DNA of 14,435 nt. Origin: Planctomycetaceae bacterium TMED10. GTDB taxonomy: Bacteria; Planctomycetota; Planctomycetia; Pirellulales; UBA7805. The stretch is taken from assembly GCA_002168195.1 (NCBI GenBank), contig NHBP01000029.1, positions 1 to 14,435 of the forward strand, read 5' to 3'. The first letter of the stretch is position 1; the number at the start of each line of letters is the position of its first letter. The position numbers and the translations under genes were made by a program. The notes under the pieces are model-generated. The model saw only the letters and a program-made list of their open reading frames with translations. It searched no databases and was not told where the DNA came from. Shown here in pieces: positions 1 to 11,755 of this stretch.

Positions 1-1281
1 AACTAATCCTGAACCACCATTTCCCGATGGGTTGGAAAAAGCTGCCCCACCACCGCCAGCGCCACTGTTTGGCTGTCCATCACCTGCGACGTTCGTAGTG
101 TAGTCATAATATTTGTTGAGTTTTCCGTTCCCGCCCCCATATTGCCCATAGCCCGACCCTGCATACATCACGCCACTGTTTTGCATACCTCCACCGCCAC
201 CACCGCCAGCAATGTAGACATTTGTTTTTCCTCCCGAACCATTACTGTGAGATAACATCTTGCCTGAGCCTCCATAGCCACCCGTAGAAGACCAGGTACT
301 CTGCGCCCCTACGGTCCCGTTGTAACCTTCGATATTTGAGCCTCCACCTCCACCGCCTGCTCTAGCCCCATATGACCAATTCTGGGCAGCTTCTCCCCCT
401 CGGAAAGCATTCACCGAGTTGGTGCCTGCATAGCCGTAATTTTGATTGATAAGCGAACCGCCACCTGATCCGAAATTCGCTGTTCCAGTCGGTGGCTGAC
501 CAGAGTTTCCTGAACCTGTTCCTCCATAACCGCCTTTGTAACCGTAAAGAACTGTTCCTGTAGCACTCGCCGTGACAGTGCTGTCACTTGCGTCAGTTGG
601 GGTTGTAGTACCTGAACTTGCGGAGCCTCCGCCTGCGCCAATGACTACTGTGAAAGTATCAATAACATCTCCTGAAGCGATTGTCGCCGGATTAAAGTCG
701 CCAGCCCCACCACCACCAGAACCATATGACCCCGAAGTCGATCCTCCAGCTCCTCCCCCTCCGATAACAGTGGAGGTCATGGTCGTAGATGCTGGGTTGC
801 TTGTCATTGTAAGAGTTCCAGCGCCCGTGAATCTCACAACAGATTTGTAGTAGCCGACACCCCCTGAGGAACTGTCTTCAAAAGTTCCCGCAACAGGAGA
901 GCCAGTAGTGCTGTATGTCGGAGCAGCTGCTGGTGCGACACTTCCAGTCAATCCTCTTTGACCTTCTTTCCAAGTCAAAGCTCTCACTGAGCAAAGGTAA
1001 GTTGTCCCGTTAGTTAAACCCGTGATTGTGTATTCTCTCAAATTAGAAGCGACGGTTGCAGAAGCAACAGTCCAATTTGAGCCACCGTCTGTTGAATAAG
1101 CAACCTCATAAAAGTTGATGATCTGCCCTTCCGAATCGGGAGCCGACCAGGTGACCCGCAGTTCTGCATCTTTACGCCAGACGACACAACCTGTTGGTGG
1201 TAGGCATTCCCTGGGTAAAAATCTTTGAGTTAGTAATCGTCTGTATCGTCTGGGGTTGTATCTACCAGAAGGAAAGGGCAT
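1..1281 (-). CDS. FN3 plus glycine-rich tail adhesin (3' partial)
   Basis: This open frame runs from ATG 1281 to the left edge, 427 codons with no stop. GGAG lies 7 nt before the ATG. The N-terminal 27 residues are basic (MPFPSGRYNPRRYRRLLTQR). A fibronectin type III domain covers about 28-121: LRVTWSAPDSEGQIINFYEV, AYSTDGGSNW, then YTITGLTNGTTYLCSVRALT. A beta segment follows (about 145-172), then a long glycine-rich region (173 to the edge). That region has runs such as GGGGAGG, GAGGGSAS, AGGGGGGS, AGGGGGGGGM and GAGGGGAAFSNP. Such domains occur in phage tip adhesins and in T-even gp38-like proteins, where glycine runs form packed polyglycine II helices carrying variable receptor loops. Here it is fused to an FN3 anchor. 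The CC-rich look of bases 1-720 on the plus strand simply reflects glycine codons. Confidence 0.85.
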   Translation of the reverse strand, partial: MPFPSGRYNPRRYRRLLTQRFLPRECLPPTGCVVWRKDAELRVTWSAPDSEGQIINFYEVAYSTDGGSNWTVASATVASNLREYTITGLTNGTTYLCSVRALTWKEGQRGLTGSVAPAAAPTYSTTGSPVAGTFEDSSSGGVGYYKSVVRFTGAGTLTMTSNPASTTMTSTVIGGGGAGGSTSGSYGSGGGGAGDFNPATIASGDVIDTFTVVIGAGGGSASSGTTTPTDASDSTVTASATGTVLYGYKGGYGGTGSGNSGQPPTGTANFGSGGGSLINQNYGYAGTNSVNAFRGGEAAQNWSYGARAGGGGGGSNIEGYNGTVGAQSTWSSTGGYGGSGKMLSHSNGSGGKTNVYIAGGGGGGGMQNSGVMYAGSGYGQYGGGNGKLNKYYDYTTNVAGDGQPNSGAGGGGAAFSNPSGNGGSGLV

Positions 1282-1285
1282 TTTT

Positions 1286-1579
1286 TTACTCCGGTGGGGT
1301 TGGCCAAACAACAGCTGAAACTCTTGTGTAAGCAGCTGGTAGATCTCTCAAATTTTGTCTATATGTTTTCCACTCATCCTGCTTCGCAGTTGTTAGTGGT
1401 GAATCGTTGCTGATCGTCCAATCTGATGTGAGAAGCAGTTGGTCACGATGGGGTCGTATGGAGCTTATGTCTTTATCATTTTCGTCTGATAACTCATTAA
1501 GTCTCGCTACTTCTTCATCGCTCATCTCAACTTCAAGCCACTCGCCTGATTCGTTCGATAATTTTGTTGGGTTTGCCAT
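1286..1579 (-). CDS. Tail fibre assembly chaperone-like protein
   Basis: This 97-residue acidic protein has AGGAG 6 nt before its ATG. Residues about 42-97 read RPHRDQLLLTSDWTISNDSP, then LTTAKQDEWKTYRQNLRDLP, and end VVWPTPPE. This is the pattern of the phage tail assembly chaperone family Phage_tail_APC (Pfam PF16778 by my recollection): 'RxxRxxLLxxSDWTxxxDsplxxxxxxxWxxYRQxLRDlPxxxxxPxxVxWPxxP'. The N-terminal half, with a MSDEEVARLNELSDENDKD stretch, is probably helical. Such proteins are encoded beside fibre genes and are thought to help fibres fold or attach. Here it lies between the six-gene array and the glycine-rich adhesin, and could serve either. It stops 4 nt before the adhesin start. 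Confidence 0.75.
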   Translation of the reverse strand: MANPTKLSNESGEWLEVEMSDEEVARLNELSDENDKDISSIRPHRDQLLLTSDWTISNDSPLTTAKQDEWKTYRQNLRDLPAAYTRVSAVVWPTPPE

Positions 1580-1587
1580 TGTGTCTC

Positions 1588-2127
1588 CTATCCGAGTCCG
1601 TACATTGTGATTGTGCTGAGTGTCGTCCAGTTTCCTGAACTTAAAGTGAACTCAACCTGGGTTACCGCAGCATTAACTGCTGGGTAGTAAGACCCTCCTC
1701 CTTGGCTTTCCATGCCATGGGTCGTCGAGTCTCTCATTGCTCCGGCATCCCATTGCATTACGTGCGAGCTTGAACTTTGTGTGTAATTAGGGATTACCAT
1801 TTCAAACCAACCCAAACACTCCTGAAAGCCGAAGGATGCGTCATCTGAAACGATTGGTTCAATCTGCCAAGAGGTTCCAGCATTAAAATTCTTAGCGGTT
1901 GCAACGCCACCGTAGTAAAAGATGCTTTTCTGAGAATAATAAGCTCCATAATCGGTGTTAATTGCTACTTGAGAAAGTTTAAAAACATCCGACGAGCTAG
2001 TCGTCTGAGTTTGACCCATGAAAATCAGACTTTTATAAGTCTGGGGAATAGACGTAAAAGAAATTGCCGGAGAGCTACCTGTTCCAGTAGCAGCATCAAT
2101 TTTGTTGTAAGGACTTGAATTGCTCAT
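1588..2127 (-). CDS. Appendage array protein 6 (probable receptor-binding family)
   Basis: This 179-residue protein is the last of the array. The start MSNSSPYNKIDAATGTGSSP leads to AISFTSIPQTYKSLIFMGQT, the family's opening strands. A middle ECLGWFEMVIPNYTQSSSSH segment corresponds to the 'VLEIxxYS' strand, and the end is VTQVEFTLSSGNWTTLSTIT followed by MYGLG. The ATG at 2127 overlaps the previous TGA in ATGA. A small gap with AGGAG leads to the chaperone-like gene. It is the shortest member and ends exactly at the YG closure, so it may represent the minimal domain shared by all six. Confidence 0.62.
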   Translation of the reverse strand: MSNSSPYNKIDAATGTGSSPAISFTSIPQTYKSLIFMGQTQTTSSSDVFKLSQVAINTDYGAYYSQKSIFYYGGVATAKNFNAGTSWQIEPIVSDDASFGFQECLGWFEMVIPNYTQSSSSHVMQWDAGAMRDSTTHGMESQGGGSYYPAVNAAVTQVEFTLSSGNWTTLSTITMYGLG

Positions 2128-2699
2128 GAGTTAAACCCGTACCAATCCCAAGTGCATCCCTGCATGAAATAGTTGCTGTTACTCCACTTGATACTCGTAA
2201 TAGCTGCTGTACTGTTCCACATTCCAGTGACGTAACCTCCGTAAACATCCGCCGAGTAGTCAGCTTGAATTGCATGGCCTCTGAAAACCTTCTTCAATGT
2301 TGTTGAGTTCCAGTTGTAGAAATCCATCATCACCATTGTCTTTGTTCCTGGTCGGGTCTCAGCTGTTCCCGTTCCGCCTGAATAGCTATATATACCGCCG
2401 AAAAAAACTGGCGAGTAATCATTAGCGACATAGTGCGTGATAGTAGATGCACCGTTTTGCGTGTAAGTGTTGTTGTGATAATAGTTCGCACTGGTTGTGT
2501 CATTGTTGAACATCATTTGCACAGAGTTACCCATCTGAGTTGTTTCCTGAGAGCCACGGATTCTCATAATCAACCGGAGATGATCGAACTCCCCAGTCGG
2601 GTCCATCCAAAAGTTTGCAATGGTGAAATCTGCTTCAGCTGCCGACCAATTAAAAACAGAGTTTGACCAAAGAGTAGTTAAAGAGTTTTTAAATCCCAT
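2124..2699 (-). CDS. Appendage array protein 5 (probable receptor-binding family)
   Basis: This is a 191-residue paralogue. I chose ATG 2699 (MGFKNSLTTLWSNSV) because it lies 1 nt after the preceding stop with GGTGG upstream; starting at 2786 would overlap the previous gene by 86 nt. Family marks are TIANFWMDPTGEFDHLRLIM followed by RIRG (about 28-51), TKTMVMMDFYNWNSTTLKKV in the middle, and AAITSIKWSNSNYFMQGCTW ending DWYGFNS. The 'WNSTAAITSIxw' phrase is widespread in this protein family. It is unusually rich in Met, Trp and Tyr compared with its neighbours. The TGA overlaps the next ATG (ATGA). Confidence 0.6.
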   Translation of the reverse strand: MGFKNSLTTLWSNSVFNWSAAEADFTIANFWMDPTGEFDHLRLIMRIRGSQETTQMGNSVQMMFNNDTTSANYYHNNTYTQNGASTITHYVANDYSPVFFGGIYSYSGGTGTAETRPGTKTMVMMDFYNWNSTTLKKVFRGHAIQADYSADVYGGYVTGMWNSTAAITSIKWSNSNYFMQGCTWDWYGFNS

Positions 2700-2700
2700 G

Positions 2701-3411
2701 TCATGCCACCAAATTGTGTGTATAGCCGTAAAGCTCGAAACTTGAACCAGCAGTCCAGGTGTCTCCTGATGAATAAGTACCCGCAATCATTGAAACGCAA
2801 TCTATTTTGTCTCCATAAATTGATGCGCCATACATGTTTGAAAAATGTCCGTCTGTACTTCCAGAAGCGGTTCGTGAATAGCGAGCCTCAAAAATCTGAT
2901 TCGAGATATTGTTCGATGAAGGTGAAGACAACCACATCTGAAACATTCCAGCATTATCTGCCGGCACGCTCGTACCGCCTCCCGAATCACTATTAAAGCC
3001 GTAAGATTCCCAGTAACGAGTTTTATTGTATGCAGCAGTTCCGTCTCCCATACCAAAAGGACCGGACATGACTACTGTCGACAGAGAGTAATAAGCACTG
3101 GAATAAACAAAGTCATTGAGATGATTCCAGTTGTACCAGGTGGAAAGCTGACCAGTTGCGCTGTCATTCTCAGTTTTAGCAATGACATAGAGCAGCCTGT
3201 AGCGTCTGAAATCGTATATCGCATCATTATCATTAGTGACAAAATCGACCCGTGTAGTTGTCGAACCTGAAACAATCGCCGAATCTATGTGAACCATTCC
3301 GTACCCAGCTTGACGGTGATTTGATGTTCTGTCCATCACCTCAGTCGGGTTATAGCGACCGACCCAGGTCCCATTGATTGATCTTTGATTCGTAAAAAAT
3401 GAATTTCCCAT
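2701..3411 (-). CDS. Appendage array protein 4 (probable receptor-binding family)
   Basis: This is a 236-residue paralogue, the longest in the array. The N-terminal part MGNSFFTNQRSINGTWVGRY is specific to this member. Then VDFVTNDNDAIYDFRRYRLL (about 55-74) matches the 'xYxxL' strand, particularly that of member 1 (WRRYEML). The C-terminal part has CVSMIAGTYSSGDTWTAGSS and ends FELYGYTHNLVA, the LYG closure with a short tail. The ATG at 3411 directly follows the previous TAA, with GAGGA a few bases upstream. Composition is rich in Ser, Tyr, Asn and Gly. It lacks recognisable enzyme motifs, so a depolymerase is not indicated. Confidence 0.6.
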   Translation of the reverse strand: MGNSFFTNQRSINGTWVGRYNPTEVMDRTSNHRQAGYGMVHIDSAIVSGSTTTRVDFVTNDNDAIYDFRRYRLLYVIAKTENDSATGQLSTWYNWNHLNDFVYSSAYYSLSTVVMSGPFGMGDGTAAYNKTRYWESYGFNSDSGGGTSVPADNAGMFQMWLSSPSSNNISNQIFEARYSRTASGSTDGHFSNMYGASIYGDKIDCVSMIAGTYSSGDTWTAGSSFELYGYTHNLVA

Positions 3412-3966
3412 TTATCCTCGCCATCCATACAGAGTTACCCATGAAGTAGTCGTCCAGTAATCTGTTGCGCTATCAGTAGCGATTGAAAGCTGAGTGATAG
3501 CAGCTGCTGCGTCGTCATGATGCCAGCCAGCCATACCTACAGGATTTAAACCGTTCGCTGAGTTGTTTTCATTGTCTGGGCTAAACCATTTATAAATCCC
3601 AGCGTTTTTAGTTGTCGCATCCGAATAATTCCCGAACCATATTTCAAGCACTGAATGACAGGCGGTACTTGCAGCTCCTCCTAGAACATTTGGACCCAAA
3701 TTGTTACCCAGGTAAGACGCTCCAGATGCGTCTCTGAAAACCCATAGATTTGCTGAGCCGTTGAAGCCAGAGTTGAATCCGCTCATAGTGTAATTAGTTG
3801 TTGAACCATTTATGAGAATCACAACAGGGTCAGTTGCAACTGTAGTTGTTGAACGAAGGAAAGCTCTCATCTCTAGATGTCTGTAATCACCGGAAATACC
3901 CGAAAAAGAAATTGTGTTTGAAGCTCCTGTCCCATTTGCTGTCGCTATAAATTCAACCGCTGCCAT
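3412..3966 (-). CDS. Appendage array protein 3 (probable receptor-binding family)
   Basis: This 184-residue protein is the clearest member of the family. The start MAAVEFIATANGTGASNTIS leads to FSGISGDYRHLEMRAFLRST (about 20-39), the standard first strands. A middle segment reads HSVLEIWFGNYSDATTKNAG, in which 'hxVLeixxYsdaxxxKt' is typical. The end is AITQLSIATDSATDYWTTTS followed by WVTLYGWRG. The pattern matches small structural proteins of aquatic phages that carry 'FSGIPxxYkhL' near the start and 'LYGI' at the end. It starts at ATG 3966, overlapping the previous stop by one base, and is followed directly by the next ATG with GAGGA upstream. Confidence 0.65.
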   Translation of the reverse strand: MAAVEFIATANGTGASNTISFSGISGDYRHLEMRAFLRSTTTVATDPVVILINGSTTNYTMSGFNSGFNGSANLWVFRDASGASYLGNNLGPNVLGGAASTACHSVLEIWFGNYSDATTKNAGIYKWFSPDNENNSANGLNPVGMAGWHHDDAAAAITQLSIATDSATDYWTTTSWVTLYGWRG

Positions 3967-4559
3967 TATGAGTTCACCATTCCATAAAGTGAAAGCCGAA
4001 CCCCTGGTTGTATCTGCCCATTGGGTCCAATCGCTATATTTGTGACTGCTTCAGCAGCTGCTTGTCCTGCCCCCACCATCGACATCATTGGCTGGGTGCT
4101 TACTCCTGAATATGAAGATCCAAAATAAATTGAGCCGTTATGAGTCGTTATGACTGTGTTTGCGTTTGGGTCTGAATAGTTGTGAAAATAGAAAACACAA
4201 GTGTTATATGTCTGATCGGATGCTGTGAAATAAGCGCTGTTGCCGATACTGCCTGTGTCATTTTGTGTCGTGTTGTAAGTGTTGGTAATGATTTCTCCAC
4301 TGTTGCCTGAGATTTTTCCCCACCCTTTATTGAAAGCAATGGTTCCTTTGGTGGAACTGTCGATGTTCCCGCTTGTATAGCTCGAAACATTGTAAGTCGC
4401 ATAATATGCATTGTCACCGCCACCTGATTGAGTGGTTGTGCAGCCCTGAACAATCACCATCAGGGTTTGATAGTCCTGGGGAATATTATCCAAGTACATC
4501 CAGCTCTGATGGCTGTCATACGTCTTTGAAAAAATGTGTTTGACTGCTTGTTCGCCCAT
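3966..4559 (-). CDS. Appendage array protein 2 (probable receptor-binding family)
   Basis: This is a 197-residue paralogue. I chose ATG 4559 (MGEQAVKHIFSKTY), which overlaps the upstream TAA and has AGGAG about 10 nt upstream, over an in-frame GTG at 4568. Family marks are SWMYLDNIPQDYQTLMVIVQ near residues 19-38, HNYSDPNANTVITTHNGSIY in the middle, and the end VRLSLYGMVNS. The NIPQDYQTL segment is close to the SIPQTYKSL of member 6, so these two may share a subfamily. It is rich in Thr, Ser, Asn, Gly and Tyr, with no signal peptide or membrane segment. It ends in TAA/TGA-type overlap with member 3 at 3966. The receptor-binding role is inferred from position and family, not seen directly. Confidence 0.6.
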   Translation of the reverse strand: MGEQAVKHIFSKTYDSHQSWMYLDNIPQDYQTLMVIVQGCTTTQSGGGDNAYYATYNVSSYTSGNIDSSTKGTIAFNKGWGKISGNSGEIITNTYNTTQNDTGSIGNSAYFTASDQTYNTCVFYFHNYSDPNANTVITTHNGSIYFGSSYSGVSTQPMMSMVGAGQAAAEAVTNIAIGPNGQIQPGVRLSLYGMVNS

Positions 4560-5248
4560 TATTCCCACTCTCCTATCCCGCCGTCATTACCGTAAAAGCC
4601 GTACAAGCTCACTGTCGTACCAGCTAGAAAATCAACAGCGCTTCCTGTTTGTATATAAGGAGTGAACTCTGCTTTCAGCGTGGGTTGCGGAGCGGTTATG
4701 GCTAAGCCACCTGTGAAATATGAACCTGCGTGATAACCGCCAGCGAAACCGACAAAAGAAGCTTGCCTGTTGCCCTGGTAACCAGTGTTGTAGTCGCAGA
4801 TCATGAAATTGCCAGATTTGGTTGTGTCTCTGCCCATCATTCCGCAAATAACTGCATCAGCGGTAAGTGAATTGACCGTTGTCTGATTCCCAGTGTTGGG
4901 ATTATTGCCGGACATCAGCTGTGAATATGCTGTTGGATGAACAGTGTAAGTTGGCCAGCTGGCTGTCTGAAGTTTTATGTAGGTGTAATCAATTCCCGTT
5001 CCGTATGGGTTGTCAATCACGGGGTACCAGATCCATCTGAGCATCTCGTACCGTCGCCAGTCTTTCTTACCGTATAAAGGGCTGGAGAAAGCAATCGATG
5101 CCGTACCCGTTGTAATATTGACGGTTTCTAACAGAGCCACACCTTCATCAATGAAGTCAGTGTCGCTGCATTGATTGGAAAAGTTGTCACTAGGTGAGAT
5201 TGAACCGCCCTGTATCGCTACAGGGTATTTGTTAGGTGGAACGTACAT
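4559..5248 (-). CDS. Appendage array protein 1 (probable receptor-binding family)
   Basis: This 229-residue protein is first of six consecutive related proteins. Shared features are an early beta part with a 'Y..L' strand (KKDWRRYEMLRWIWYPVI, about 61-78), an aromatic, Asn/Gly/Ser/Thr-rich middle, and an end in a strand closing with LYG (TTVSLYGFYG). The N-terminus MYVPPNKYPVAIQGGSISPS differs from the others and may be an anchor. The start is ATG 5248, 3 nt after the previous stop, with a poor ribosome site, so coupling is likely. Proteins of this build ('dYk.L.lrg...', ending 'f.LYGi') are frequent near the end of tail operons in aquatic phages. They are presumed appendage or host-recognition proteins. 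Its stop overlaps the next ATG (TAATG). Confidence 0.6.
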   Translation of the reverse strand: MYVPPNKYPVAIQGGSISPSDNFSNQCSDTDFIDEGVALLETVNITTGTASIAFSSPLYGKKDWRRYEMLRWIWYPVIDNPYGTGIDYTYIKLQTASWPTYTVHPTAYSQLMSGNNPNTGNQTTVNSLTADAVICGMMGRDTTKSGNFMICDYNTGYQGNRQASFVGFAGGYHAGSYFTGGLAITAPQPTLKAEFTPYIQTGSAVDFLAGTTVSLYGFYGNDGGIGEWE

Positions 5249-5251
5249 GTC

Positions 5252-5626
5252 TTATGAAATGTCTTCGTATGCAACCATGACGTGAAGGTAGCCAGAAGCA
5301 TTATCTGACTTGGCGTACAAAGTGTCACCTTCTTCCAAGTACACGGGTGTTCCATCTTTCAAAAACGCTTCATATACAGAAAGAGCTGGAATGGGTACTT
5401 CTTTAGCCAAGTAGTAGTCCACGCCTCCTCTTGTTATATAAAGATCGAAAGAGGCTGTCACAGAACTAGAACCTGAAGTGTTAGTGGCGAGAACGCCAGC
5501 TAATTTCAAGACCTTATTCGATGATGCCCCGTTTGCTAAAACGCTGCCCGCTGTAGCAGACGACAAAGCAGTCAAAGCTGTCTTGCCGTTTATGGTTGCT
5601 ACGTTGACAATGTTGGGTGCTGTCAT
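5252..5626 (-). CDS. Small fibre-associated structural protein
   Basis: This 124-residue protein begins MTAPNIVNVATINGKTALTA, a start seen in many small structural proteins of aquatic phages that lie among fibre genes. The middle shows alternating beta strands (SVTASFDLYITRGGVDYYLA, then KEVPIPALSVYEAFLKDGTP). The end is YLEEGDTLYAKSDNASGYLH followed by VMVAYEDIS, the usual closing motif of this family. There are no catalytic features, signal peptide or membrane segment. AGGAG 8 nt before the ATG overlaps the fibre gene's stop region. It is probably a small trimeric or ring-forming tail appendage subunit. The family pattern is recognised with fair confidence, but the role is not established. 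Confidence 0.7.
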   Translation of the reverse strand: MTAPNIVNVATINGKTALTALSSATAGSVLANGASSNKVLKLAGVLATNTSGSSSVTASFDLYITRGGVDYYLAKEVPIPALSVYEAFLKDGTPVYLEEGDTLYAKSDNASGYLHVMVAYEDIS

Positions 5627-5635
5627 TTTTTTCTC

Positions 5636-6325
5636 CTATCCAAAAACCATTGACATGGCTATCGCTTTGCCTGTTGTTACACCGCTCGACTGGGTTGCCC
5701 ACGCTAAACCTGAAGCTGTAGTGCTGTCAGCTGTTAGCACTTGGGTGTCTGACCCAACCGTAAGTTTTGTTGAAGTATCAGCACCAGTTCCCACTACCAA
5801 ATCACCCAGGGCATCGGTATCAATACCAATGGTCAAATCTCCACTGGTTCCGCCCCCTTGGAGTCCATTCCCCGCCGTCACGCCCGTGACATCGCCAGGG
5901 TTAGGAGCGGACCAGGCTAATCCTGAAGCTGTAGTGCTGTCAGCTGTCAAAATGTGTGTATCAGTCCCGACTCCGAGCTTTGTTGAAGTATCGGCTCCGG
6001 TACCGACCACCAGGTCACCTTTGGTATCTGTGTCAATGCCGATCGTGATTTCTCCTGCGGAACCACCACCCTGGAGACCATTCCCAGCCGTCACGCCCGT
6101 CACATCACCAACTGGCCATCCAGCCCAGACAGATCCGTCATAGTAGACCAGAGAGTTTGTGTCTTTCAGGTAGGCGTTCATTCCTTCCGTTGGACTGGTA
6201 ACAGCTGCATCTCTAGCTGTCGCATCAGCGAAAACCATCACAGTTTGTTCCATCAAATATGTGTTCACTTCAGCAGCGGTCAAAACCGAGCCATCAGTGA
6301 AATTTTTGAAACCGGCTCCTGCCAT
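5636..6325 (-). CDS. Tail fibre-like protein with 71-residue tandem duplication
   Basis: This 229-residue protein has a strong AGGAGG site 5 nt before its ATG. The N-terminus FKNFTDGSVLTAAEVNTYLM, then VMVFADATARDAAV and YDGSVWAGW, is typical of phage fibre or tail-appendage proteins. Two near-identical 71-residue units follow (73-143 and 144-214). Each runs GDVTGVTAGNGLQGGG, a TIGIDTD segment, GDLVVGTGADTSTKL and then LTADSTTASGLAW. Repeats of the kind 'KGDLLVGTxADTxxxLxVGxxxQVLTADSTTATGLxW' are common in phage fibres, where they form trimeric beta shafts. A short end (SSGVTTGKAIAMSMVFG) follows. It is probably a short shaft connecting the tip to the appendages encoded next. Confidence 0.75.
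   Translation of the reverse strand: MAGAGFKNFTDGSVLTAAEVNTYLMEQTVMVFADATARDAAVTSPTEGMNAYLKDTNSLVYYDGSVWAGWPVGDVTGVTAGNGLQGGGSAGEITIGIDTDTKGDLVVGTGADTSTKLGVGTDTHILTADSTTASGLAWSAPNPGDVTGVTAGNGLQGGGTSGDLTIGIDTDALGDLVVGTGADTSTKLTVGSDTQVLTADSTTASGLAWATQSSGVTTGKAIAMSMVFG
5684..6109 (-). repeat. Tandem in-frame repeat, 2 x 213 bp
   Basis: The unit at 5897-6109 encodes residues 73-143 and the unit at 5684-5896 encodes residues 144-214 of the fibre. They abut exactly and keep frame. The DNA is partly diverged: some stretches are almost identical (around 5705-5732 and 5918-5945), while others differ at third positions. That indicates a duplication that has been kept under selection, not a very recent copy. 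Confidence 0.85.
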
Positions 6326-6333
6326 TTTTCCTC

Positions 6334-7560
6334 CTAGTAAGCGAGAACCGAAGTTCCCAAAATGCCCTGAACTGAAGAACCAAGAATGAATCCGTCAACC
6401 AGGGGTTCTGTAGTTGTGAAAGTCGTCTTAAAAGACGAAGGGGTGATCGTGTGTTGAATCCCCTGGACTGTCAAAGTTTTCTGCGTGGTTGTTCCAGCTG
6501 GATAACTTCTGTTGACAGTTATAGGGGAATAAAAATCAAGATCCAAAGCAGCTGCGACTCTTGCTGCGTTGTCTTCCGTTGCGTCAATCTTTAATTCTCG
6601 TACTCTCAAATCTGGATCTTTCCTAGCGCCCAGGATTGCGTTTGCTTGAGAGTTTGCTTCTGAATCTGTTTGCATCAGTAGCCCTGACCGATTCAGGTTT
6701 CGTTCAAAATAGTTAGTGATAGAGGTTGCATCAGACACTACTTGTGCCGAACCACCGCTTCTTGTGACACTTATCTTGTTGCGAAGGAGTCTTTCATCAA
6801 TCTGGAGCTGAATACCCTCGTAACCGATATTGGAGCCATTGTCATTGAAAATTGTTGGTGTTCCGTCAAGAGCTTTAATTGATTCAGAGCGTGAAACGAA
6901 TTTCAAATTGCCGTCACCCGTCATGAAAACTCCACCCAGTTCAGTTTCAGCTAAGAGCTGTACTGCATCCAGGGCTGCTCTTTCAGTCGCAGAATCTGCC
7001 TGGACTGTCGTATCACCTGCGTCAATATCTCTTTGACTTGCTGGCCAATTAATCGCATCCAGAACTTCACCCAGGCGGGTTCCAGTCGTTTGTCCAGCTG
7101 CTCCACCAGTCACTGTCGTGAATTTCGCCAGGTTCAAAAGTCTGAATCCGTCCATGCATTGCAAACTCAGGAAAGCAGCTGCTGCCCCTTTCTTGAAGTT
7201 GTATGTCCAAGAGATTATGTAACCGCTGAAAAGAAATCGTTTAGACCCTCCATAACTCGCTGCCACTCTTACCTGGTGAAGTGGTTTGATGTCATAAGTC
7301 CCTGAGGATGGATCAAGGCTGCCGTCTAAATCAACAAGCTCTATCGAGCAAATACCAGCCTCAAATTTGTCTAGTACCCTGGTCCTTCCTCGACTGATTG
7401 AAACTTTCCTGGTTTTGTCTGAAAAATCAACAGGCACATTTGCAGAAGTACCCAGGACAGCTTCACCGAGTTTCCCTAAAGGGTCACCAAGCACCATTGC
7501 GTTGCCGAAAGATGGACCGCCAGCAAACCTGATTGTGGTTTCTACGGTTGGAGCTGGCAT
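6334..7560 (-). CDS. Minor tail protein / tail tip hub-like protein
   Basis: This 408-residue protein is coupled to the tape measure through a TGATG overlap. The section VDFSDKTRKVSISRGRTRVL, then DKFEAGICSIELVDLDGSLD and LFSGYIISWTYNF (residues about 44-122), is the pattern of actinobacteriophage minor tail proteins encoded right after the tape measure. These are thought to form the distal tail/hub layer to which fibres attach. A middle part has GTRLGEVLDAINWPASQRDI and a GGVFMTGDGNLKFVSR strand. The C-terminal third resembles hub beta domains, with RNKISVTRSGG and a LTVQGIQHTITPSSFKTTF strand pair. Only one protein of this size follows the tape measure, so distal-tail and hub roles may be combined here. 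The exact structural role is inferred. Confidence 0.75.
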   Translation of the reverse strand: MPAPTVETTIRFAGGPSFGNAMVLGDPLGKLGEAVLGTSANVPVDFSDKTRKVSISRGRTRVLDKFEAGICSIELVDLDGSLDPSSGTYDIKPLHQVRVAASYGGSKRFLFSGYIISWTYNFKKGAAAAFLSLQCMDGFRLLNLAKFTTVTGGAAGQTTGTRLGEVLDAINWPASQRDIDAGDTTVQADSATERAALDAVQLLAETELGGVFMTGDGNLKFVSRSESIKALDGTPTIFNDNGSNIGYEGIQLQIDERLLRNKISVTRSGGSAQVVSDATSITNYFERNLNRSGLLMQTDSEANSQANAILGARKDPDLRVRELKIDATEDNAARVAAALDLDFYSPITVNRSYPAGTTTQKTLTVQGIQHTITPSSFKTTFTTTEPLVDGFILGSSVQGILGTSVLAY

Positions 7561-10554: not shown

Positions 10555-10965
10555 TCAGGCAGTTCCTATTGTTTGATCTCCTGTGCATTGCAAGTTGAAA
10601 TTCAGCGTTGCTGTTCCCCCAACTGACGATCCTGGGCTCATCGAAGTGAGTAAACATTCACCACTGAGCTTTGGATTTCCACCAGTTGTTCCATCTGGGT
10701 AAAATTCATAGCTTTTAGAAGTGCTTGAACCTCTAATCGCTCCCAGGTGTGCGACCAAAGTCGCATCAAACAGCGCTGTCACAGATACTGAGCCGTCTGC
10801 CAAGGTCAAGATGTACTCTTTGGAACTGTCCCCATAGGTCGTTGTTTCCGCAGAATCGTCTCCGAAGTCGACGCTCACGTCAGTTATATATGCACTCAAG
10901 TCGGTTATTGAACCACCGCTGTTATCCAACTTGAACACAGAGTTTTTTCCAGCTACGAAAGCCAT
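10555..10965 (-). CDS. Second tail tube-like protein (single domain paralogue)
   Basis: This 136-residue protein looks like a minimal tail tube domain. It starts MAFV, like its upstream neighbour, and shares motifs at matching places: AETTTYGDSSKEYILTLADG against DTTTLADTSKSFISG, and the end LNFNLQCTGDQ against VNFTINMETTGDQ. It lacks the C-terminal decoration domain of the 245-residue protein. AGGAG precedes the ATG by 7 nt. A 52-bp gap separates it from the first tube gene. It may be a second tube component, a tube-initiating or tube-terminating ring, or the true tube protein with the larger copy as a minor form. The fold assignment is firmer than the role. Confidence 0.75.
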   Translation of the reverse strand: MAFVAGKNSVFKLDNSGGSITDLSAYITDVSVDFGDDSAETTTYGDSSKEYILTLADGSVSVTALFDATLVAHLGAIRGSSTSKSYEFYPDGTTGGNPKLSGECLLTSMSPGSSVGGTATLNFNLQCTGDQTIGTA

Positions 10966-11017: not shown

Positions 11018-11755
11018 TTAGAGTCGAGCGAACCCGACTGCGAACTTAAATGAAGGCGTTGTGCCTCCGATAGTGGCACTTACTCTCAAGTACCGATTGA
11101 TTGTGACACCTGACGCAACTGCCAGACGTTGTGAAGTCGTTCCCGTTGCCTGGGTGTATGTCAAAAGTGTTGAATAGGTCGTGTCATCAGCTGAATGCTG
11201 AACCACAACATCTAAAGTTGGGCTAGTTCCTGAAACTTCAACAACATTTAGATTTGCGACAGCTCCTGTGCTTGTAGAGCTTGAATTGTCAACAGCTGTC
11301 CCGTTTCCGGTTGCTGTTTGAGCTGTTCCAGGGTCGAAAAGACTCACGCCATAGCCCTGGTCTCCAGTTGTTTCCATATTTATGGTGAAATTAACCGTTC
11401 CAGCTACAGATGAATTATTGGACCAGGAAGTTTCTGTCGCCTGAGCAACCCAGACTTGATTCCCAGCTGCGAAACCCTCCAGGGCAATTATTGCTGGAAC
11501 TCCATCAGAGTCACCCTTTATTGCATAAAGATCTTGCCACTGACTGTTTGCCACGGTTGCACTTGCACTATCTATGAGCCCATTACAGGTCATAGTGCCA
11601 GACATCATGCCAGAAATGAAGCTCTTTGAAGTGTCAGCCAGGGTAGTTGTGTCCAGAGGATCCACAGCGCTGGATGTGTCTACGCTTGTCAAGTCGCCCG
11701 ACCATTCTCGGTCGCTGATCGCTATGCGGCTGTTGTGTGTTGGTACAAATGCCAT
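11018..11755 (-). CDS. Major tail tube protein with C-terminal extra domain
   Basis: This 245-residue protein is the probable main tail tube subunit, stacking in rings around the tape measure. The N-terminal domain (about 1-140) has features of siphovirus tube proteins: MAFVPTHNSRIAI, then AVDPLDTTTLADTSKSFISG, and the closing strand VNFTINMETTGDQ. A Ser/Thr/Gly linker (about 144-165) leads to a second beta domain (166-245) with DVVVQHSADDTTYSTLLTY and RYLRVSATIGG. This second domain resembles the surface-exposed Ig-like or carbohydrate-binding-like decorations seen on many tail tube proteins. AAGGA 8 nt before the ATG is a fair ribosome site. It shares its first four residues and several core motifs with the next gene, so the two are paralogues. 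Which of the two is the main tube protein cannot be settled from sequence alone. Confidence 0.8.
   Translation of the reverse strand: MAFVPTHNSRIAISDREWSGDLTSVDTSSAVDPLDTTTLADTSKSFISGMMSGTMTCNGLIDSASATVANSQWQDLYAIKGDSDGVPAIIALEGFAAGNQVWVAQATETSWSNNSSVAGTVNFTINMETTGDQGYGVSLFDPGTAQTATGNGTAVDNSSSTSTGAVANLNVVEVSGTSPTLDVVVQHSADDTTYSTLLTYTQATGTTSQRLAVASGVTINRYLRVSATIGGTTPSFKFAVGFARL

What the first reader, a model, noticed from the sequence alone, without database searches (positions are those of the whole stretch)
1588..5248. Six consecutive divergent paralogues form a probable receptor-binding array
Six genes in a row (229, 197, 184, 236, 191 and 179 aa) share an early 'Y..L' strand (WRRYEML, PQDYQTL, SGDYRHL, FRRYRLL, EFDHLRL, PQTYKSL) and a closing YG motif (LYGFYG, LYGM, LYGW, LYGY, WYGF, MYGL). 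Their middle parts differ greatly. They take up about a quarter of the window and are joined by overlaps or near-zero gaps, so they should be made together. One or two copies of this kind of protein are common in aquatic phage genomes; six side by side suggests an expanded set for multi-receptor binding, a hetero-oligomeric tip, or repeated duplication for host-range change.
Basis: partly seen in the sequence, partly recalled or inferred. Interest (0 to 1): 0.7.

Follow-up and report, generated by a model that had tools for sequence, protein, structure and literature searches.

The report
Phage receptor-binding heads encoded in threes
Six neighbouring genes in an aquatic phage are two sets of three related tail-tip proteins, and close relatives of these genes also come in sets of three, which suggests that three different proteins join into one lopsided receptor-binding head.

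Summary
The six genes at 1588-5248 (minus strand) are real, near-contiguous and belong to one large, unnamed phage family. The unit, however, is three genes. Of 142 non-redundant arrays in IMG/VR loci, all 82 that lie 600 nt or more from either end hold a multiple of three copies (80 with 3, 2 with 6). Within each of two lineages the first, second and third genes form separate clades with 0-2 misplaced proteins. Marine-lineage profiles assign A-F to positions 1,2,3,1,2,3, and likewise six orthologues in a second phage, L182. Close relatives carry 0 or 3 copies in the same slot. Distant relatives are single-copy, one shown fused behind a fibre; two related bacterial proteins carry three heads in one chain. 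Models of C and, at low confidence, D are lectin-like beta-sandwiches. Best reading: each triplet encodes a 1:1:1 heterotrimeric receptor-binding head, so this phage makes two. Heterotrimerisation is inferred, not shown. A published precedent, virophage DSLV2 (PMC12724248), uses an unrelated domain. Main rival: three homotrimers stacked in a chain. New variant of a known kind.

The parts
4559..5248 (-). gene A, first triplet, position 1 (229 aa, N-terminal extension)
   Evidence: position profile M1 15.2 bits vs best of 500 shuffles 10.0; L182 orthologue (56% identical) 29.1; hhalign best to position 1
3966..4559 (-). gene B, first triplet, position 2 (197 aa)
   Evidence: M2 16.3 bits vs 10.9; L182 orthologue (39%) 29.2
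3412..3966 (-). gene C, first triplet, position 3 (184 aa); modelled as beta-sandwich
   Evidence: M3 53.4 bits, M2 45.3; AlphaFold2 pLDDT 77.8, pTM 0.78
2701..3411 (-). gene D, second triplet, position 1 (236 aa, N-terminal extension)
   Evidence: M1 15.4 bits vs best shuffle 7.1, but M3 14.6; L182 orthologue M1 23.4, M3 18.7; relatives P0126, P0127 18.7 and 22.5 bits with position 1; AlphaFold2 pLDDT 59.7, pTM 0.63
2124..2699 (-). gene E, second triplet, position 2 (191 aa)
   Evidence: M2 47.6 bits, M3 42.2, M1 40.7
1588..2127 (-). gene F, second triplet, position 3 (179 aa)
   Evidence: M3 54.2 bits, M2 51.4; best pairwise partner is C
5252..5626 (-). 124-aa gene directly upstream of the array, kept in L182 in the same place; unknown function, possible adaptor
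   Evidence: near-identical ends in L182 6806-7180, by eye
5636..6325 (-). short tail fibre (phrog_38058)
   Evidence: E 2.6e-16
6334..7560 (-). distal tail / hub-like protein (phrog_5313, itself of unknown function); 78-81% identical in relatives
1286..1579 (-). tail assembly chaperone-like protein (PF16778, phrog_4912) directly downstream of the array
1..1311 (-). fn3 + glycine-rich fibre protein (PF00041, phrog_2295), cut by the contig end

Best explanation
The array is two tandem triplets (A-B-C and D-E-F) of one lectin-like head-domain family at the tail tip of a siphovirus-like phage. Each triplet is translated together and its three different products assemble 1:1:1 into one asymmetric, pseudo-threefold head; the first subunit (A, D) carries an N-terminal extension that tethers the head to the fibre or hub. 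The phage thus displays two different heads, each with three different loop faces, for binding cell-surface glycans. Shown: family membership, sets of three, position-specific subfamilies, tail-gene neighbourhood, predicted fold. Inferred: heterotrimer, 1:1:1 ratio, tether, glycan binding.
For: 82 of 82 non-redundant arrays lying 600 nt or more from either end hold 3n copies; the 60 nearer an end are 43x3, 14x2, 2x1, 1x9. For 330 proteins of position-labelled arrays the best hit in another locus has the same position in 330 with identity capped at 50%, 255 at 40%, 140 at 35%; 5-fold cross-validation of position profiles 305 of 305, folds mixing both lineages; within lineage F (68 triplets) positions form clades with 0, 0 and 1 errors, within M (62) with 2, 2 and 0; branch supports 0.38 to 1.0, and the F position-2 clade defines the split. 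Window and L182 arrays both read 1,2,3,1,2,3. N-terminal extensions over 60 aa only in position 1 (5 of 130); C-terminal extensions over 40 aa only in position 2 (2 of 130) and 3 (4 of 130) (starts are the first start codon of the frame). The extensions of L104, L111 and L148 match fn3 (above Pfam's cut-off only in L111), those of L156 (position 3), L112 and L163 match Gly_rich_2. Mean identity is alike in the three positions (0.367, 0.369, 0.375). P0016 is one frame with a position-2 and a position-3 head, a natural fusion or a lost stop. Two related bacterial proteins hold three heads in one chain. One actinobacterial bin holds two triplets on two contigs. Virophage DSLV2 shows that three consecutive paralogous tail genes with position-specific clades can form a purified heterotrimer (PMC12724248, parts 1-4 of 7 read).
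Against: No assembly was measured or modelled. Position order is not the same in the two lineages: cross-lineage position calls agree for 130 of 204 and 115 of 186; F position 1 matches M position 2 (68 of 68; reverse 61 of 62), and positions are not monophyletic over the whole tree. With lineage F profiles the window does not read 1,2,3,1,2,3; with M profiles D and F win by only 0.8 and 2.8 bits. Distant relatives occur as single copies: 11 Streptomyces phage records with one place each and one bacterial genome, G502, with one 213-aa head. In the three-head bacterial chains the order of best matches is not 1,2,3 and the three heads hardly match each other. Sets of three alone do not exclude three separate homotrimers.
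Confidence: 0.6

Rival explanations
1. Each gene makes its own homotrimer and the three homotrimers stack head to tail into a short chain, with position 1 tail-proximal and position 3 distal.
For: Anabaena phage A-1(L) gp82, gp81 and gp80, from one operon, form such a bead chain of trimers (PMC10966104, section 8 read; other passages). Position 1 alone has long N-terminal extensions, as a base would.
Against: A chain does not demand exactly three paralogues, or 3n; A-1(L) uses about 14 gp81 trimers. Glycine-rich extensions occur on position 2 and on position 3, in L156 on both (position 2 by sequence; position 3 scanned), not only on a distal tip. The three positions are equally variable. Three-head single chains and a 2+3 fusion fit side-by-side packing more simply, though a string of heads is possible too.
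Confidence: 0.17
2. Six independent homotrimeric receptor-binding proteins, an expanded toolkit for several receptors.
For: Middle parts diverge strongly; copy number differs between relatives; single-copy distant relatives exist.
Against: Copy number moves in threes and positions keep their identity within a lineage; free choice of receptors would give 1, 2, 4 or 5 copies and shuffled order.
Confidence: 0.1
3. The array products are chaperones, caps or decoration proteins of the glycine-rich fibre encoded next door rather than the receptor-binding head itself.
For: A chaperone-like gene (PF16778) and a glycine-rich fibre follow the array; chaperone caps on tail fibres are known in Alteromonas phages (PMC10579305, abstract and section list read).
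Against: The head domain is fused to fn3 in position 1 and to Gly_rich_2 in positions 2 and 3 in a few loci, and names among its listed structural neighbours include side tail fibre and collagen triple helix repeat: it looks like part of the fibre. How many triplets have a separate glycine-rich gene beside them was not counted.
Confidence: 0.08

Closest known systems
Tripartite heterotrimeric tail proteins of virophage DSLV2 (PMC12724248)
   Same: Three consecutive, co-oriented paralogous genes of about 200 aa; position-specific clades; receptor-binding role
   Different: PF07484 collar / T4 gp37-like needle fold in a virophage; here no Pfam match, a lectin-like beta-sandwich in tailed phages, and arrays of 3 and 6 (one of 9 near a locus end)
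Single-gene fibres with the same head, e.g. Streptomyces phage LazerLemon gp30 (398 aa); 10 further Streptomyces phage records match
   Same: Same head domain, at the C-terminus of LazerLemon gp30
   Different: One copy; in LazerLemon fused behind a stalk. Pooled position profiles score it alike (66, 70, 66 bits), but lineage profiles prefer M2 (73 bits; M3 59, F1 52, F3 51, F2 45, M1 33). Homotrimer is my inference
Anabaena phage A-1(L) neck fibre gp82-gp81-gp80 (PMC10966104)
   Same: Three neighbouring fibre genes, trimeric beads
   Different: Homotrimers stacked, gp81:gp82:gp80 about 14:1:1; homology to this family not tested
phrog_31512 (PHROGs, unknown function)
   Same: One L009 member matches (E 3.4e-4)
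   Different: None of the six window proteins matches it at E 1
Concanavalin A-like lectins and galectins
   Same: Beta-sandwich; many of the 50 best solved structures listed are lectins or beta-sandwich domains of sugar-active enzymes

Membership tests
free-standing LYG head family of aquatic phages (unnamed, defined here) | profile match over most of the length, ending in aromatic/aliphatic-YG | tested here: met
   six of six above 500 shuffles with lineage M profiles; A and D weak, supported by L182 orthologues and by D's relatives P0126/P0127
free-standing LYG head family of aquatic phages (unnamed, defined here) | copies in multiples of three, in position order | tested here: met
   six copies, best positions 1,2,3,1,2,3 in the window and in L182 with lineage M profiles, narrow for D and F; not reproduced with lineage F profiles
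DSLV2-type heterotrimeric tail proteins | PF07484 tail collar domain in each subunit | tested here: not met
   Pfam scan of the six at E 1: only PF05906 at E 0.23 for A
DSLV2-type heterotrimeric tail proteins | three consecutive paralogues with position-specific clades | tested here: met
   within a lineage
DSLV2-type heterotrimeric tail proteins | co-purifying 1:1:1 complex | not testable with these tools
   no complex modelling or bench work here
ConA-like lectin / glucanase fold | clear structural match well above unrelated folds | tested here: inconclusive
A-1(L)-type bead-chain neck fibre | sequence homology to gp80-82 | not tested
   sequences not fetched

The most novel reading that the evidence does not exclude
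Tailed phages of fresh and salt water widely carry an obligate hetero-trimeric receptor-binding head: a single-gene homotrimeric fibre head was triplicated, the copies specialised so that each head needs one of each, and whole triplets are now gained, lost and doubled as cassettes, so that arrays of 3, 6 and 9 genes give one, two or three different asymmetric heads per virion. Each head then has three unlike loop faces that can evolve separately.
Probability: 0.5. Interest if true: 0.85.

Novelty: new variant of a known kind. Interest (0 to 1): 0.72.

Why it matters
Phage receptor-binding fibres are generally taught as homotrimers (my knowledge, not a call). A large unannotated family whose free-standing members come in threes would mean that many aquatic phages build their adhesin from three specialised subunits, the phage counterpart of paralogue hetero-oligomers elsewhere. 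It would explain a thousand or more 'hypothetical proteins' (1047 matches), give a rule for annotating them, and make subunit specialisation, cassette exchange and multi-receptor binding testable with three small proteins.

Tried and rejected
Pfam and PHROGs scans of the six gave no useful match. Direct pairwise comparison failed to connect most of the six. tblastn against cultured phages: no match for C or for the L182 orthologue of C; for D 25 records, the 15 listed with E of 2 or more. Scans for close relatives of C in IMG/VR and for relatives of the hub in named genomes gave nothing. The last IMG/VR scan, with D relatives, found one locus (L182), the best single confirmation.

Census history: the first count grouped genes less than 400 nt apart and gave, of 74 untruncated arrays, 67 with 3, 2 with 6 and five others. 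Four of the five (L142, L153, L164, L175) proved to be triplets split by an HNH_3 gene; the fifth is the window, of which the pooled profiles find only C, E and F. I then raised the gap to 900 nt, changed the rule for removing duplicates and lowered the flank rule from 700 to 600 nt; the 82 of 82 comes from that second, post hoc setting and leaves the window out.

A tree over all sequences did not make positions monophyletic; splitting by lineage explained it. That tree held 125 of 130 triplets because equal names overwrote five in my script; one search repeats it with all 130 and its numbers are used. LazerLemon gp30 first looked position-neutral; lineage profiles prefer M2, so I dropped that argument. 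In the bin's class (397 genomes) the family was found only in the window's own contig, but that profile found only one of the window's six genes and at most 8 candidates per genome were scored, so I name no host; an endolysin of L182 was not found in the bin, which by the tool's own word shows nothing. PDB sequence searches found no relative; two hits at E 0.11 and 0.22 are taken as chance. Paper searches for heterotrimeric phage fibres (lists capped at 8-15 rows) listed, for three consecutive tail genes, only the virophage paper; the library lacks most subscription journals and all bioRxiv preprints.
Full report
What is there. The window is a whole 14,435-base contig (C78) of a 3.76 Mb metagenome bin. 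All genes of interest are on the minus strand and read as the late region of a tailed phage: major head protein, adaptor, tail terminator, two major tail proteins, neck protein, tail chaperone-like protein, a short tape measure protein, a hub-like protein (phrog_5313), a short fibre, a 124-aa gene, the six array genes, a tail assembly chaperone-like protein (PF16778) and an fn3 plus glycine-rich fibre cut by the contig end. The array genes A to F (4559-5248, 3966-4559, 3412-3966, 2701-3411, 2124-2699, 1588-2127) are joined by gaps of -1, -1, 0, +1 and -4 nt.

One family. By direct comparison only C and F are clearly related (local z 11.6). Starting from C, its hits P0001-P0004, F and three genes of a related phage (L009), an alignment search found 1047 proteins at E 0.01 or better; none of the 120 listed has a Pfam domain and the named ones are called hypothetical or uncharacterized. 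A profile from these places C, E and F firmly and B weakly (it contained a 63% relative of C, P0002, and a close relative of F, P0034). A and D needed better tools: position profiles of the marine lineage without L009 give A 15.2 and D 15.4 bits against best shuffles of 10.0 and 7.1, and their orthologues in L182 give 29.1 and 23.4. D's relatives P0126 and P0127 (70% and 45% identical) score 18.7 and 22.5 bits with position 1 against best shuffles of 6.5 and 5.3.

The unit is three. I collected IMG/VR loci with two alignments of the family (80 loci kept from each) and found members by profile in the 179 sequences then held. After removing near-duplicates, 82 arrays lie at least 600 nt from either end of their locus: 80 have three genes and 2 have six. 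The 60 arrays nearer an end have 3 (43), 2 (14), 1 (2) or 9 (1). L159, the array of nine, shows three sets in a row, each long-short-short: 197/171/167, 194/164/172, 191/160/167 aa. The window's lengths 229/197/184, 236/191/179 repeat this pattern. The settings were chosen after the first count, as told under Tried and rejected.

Positions are different proteins. For 330 position-labelled proteins the best hit in another locus was at the same position in all cases with identity capped at 100, 60 or 50%; at 40% it was 255, at 35% 140 and at 30% 118 of 330. Position profiles classified 305 of 305 in 5-fold cross-validation. The data fall into two lineages, F (68 triplets) and M (62; L009 is of the M type); within each, positions are clades with 0, 0, 1 and 2, 2, 0 misplaced proteins, with branch supports from 0.38 to 1.0 (which repeats with all 130 triplets). 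Between lineages the third positions match each other (67 of 68, 57 of 62), but F position 1 matches M position 2 (68 of 68 and 61 of 62), F position 2 also matches M position 2 (63 of 68) and M position 1 matches F position 1 (57 of 62). So at least two roles look older than the split, while the order changed or copies were remade (inference). The window and L182 follow lineage M: both read 1,2,3,1,2,3, D and F by narrow margins. With lineage F profiles they do not.

The window's relatives. Phages with a hub 78-81% identical to the window's carry different cassettes in the slot after the fibre: L003, L005 and L018 have glycine-rich proteins there (by eye) and no member of the family (no ORF at E 1 or better in the three), L009 has one triplet, the window two. 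L004, L008 and L017 show no member either, but their contigs stop before the slot and are not counted. L182, on a 56 kb contig, carries all six orthologues (39-56% identical) in the same order between a matching 124-aa gene and chaperone-like and fn3/glycine-rich genes. So the double triplet is an old, kept arrangement, not a fresh duplication.

One gene, three genes, one chain. In cultured phages the head occurs once in each of 11 Streptomyces phage records; LazerLemon gp30 (398 aa) carries it at the C-terminus. It scores alike with the three pooled position profiles but prefers M2 among lineage profiles. The unannotated record ct2KA10 holds a triplet in order 1,2,3. Of 394 sampled genomes of the class of an actinobacterial bin, four match (at most 8 candidates per genome were scored): that bin with two triplets on two contigs, in order 1,2,3; one genome (G502) with a single 213-aa head next to a fibre-like gene (by eye); and two with related proteins of 519 and 548 aa in which three successive segments, cut by me, each match the family profile above 500 shuffles (39.4, 12.6, 55.0 and 15.7, 10.0, 48.1 bits; best shuffles 2.3, 3.3, 3.4 and 4.5, 8.1, 1.6). 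The middle segments are weak (with the position-2 profile that of the 519-aa protein is not above shuffles), the segments hardly match each other, their best positions are not in order 1,2,3, and the two proteins are one case, being 50% identical. P0016 (347 aa) joins a position-2 and a position-3 head.

Mechanism. The simplest account of strict threes, specialised positions, one subunit with an N-terminal addition and three-head chains is a 1:1:1 head, perhaps derived from a single-gene homotrimer like LazerLemon gp30. The published case of virophage DSLV2 shows that such a heterotrimer can exist and can be purified. The stack of homotrimers known from phage A-1(L) is the main rival. No result here measures the assembly.

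Novelty. Searches of an open-access library listed heterotrimeric tails made by three consecutive genes only in the virophage paper; subscription journals are mostly not covered and the lists were capped. The domain, the viruses (tailed phages) and the 3n arrays differ, so I call it a new variant of a known kind.

Noticed in passing
L142 2468-2890, L153 2961-3521, L164 6566-6985, L175 5013-5483: HNH_3 endonuclease genes sit between members of a triplet without breaking it, as homing endonucleases do in tail genes.
   Followed up: partly
L191 406-1965 and L192 274-1920: Bacterial proteins of 519 and 548 aa with three head domains in one chain; neighbours do not look like phage genes by eye (not scanned).
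   Followed up: partly
L003 15915-16577; L005 7917-9112; L018 14002-15239: Where the window's relatives lack the array, genes like 2OG-Fe(II) oxygenases lie after the glycine-rich protein (PF13640 scanned in L003 only; the others by eye).
   Followed up: no
L005 11660-12853, L009 8059-9450, L018 17796-18989: Integrase-like genes downstream suggest that the window's phage group is temperate (read from the ORF lists; not scanned).
   Followed up: no
window 10555-10965 and 11018-11755: Two different major tail protein genes in a row (phrog_10528 and phrog_9522).
   Followed up: no
whole contig C78 of G000: In 397 genomes of the bin's class the head family was found only in the window's own contig, by a profile that found one of its six genes; the contig may be a phage binned by chance.
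   Followed up: partly
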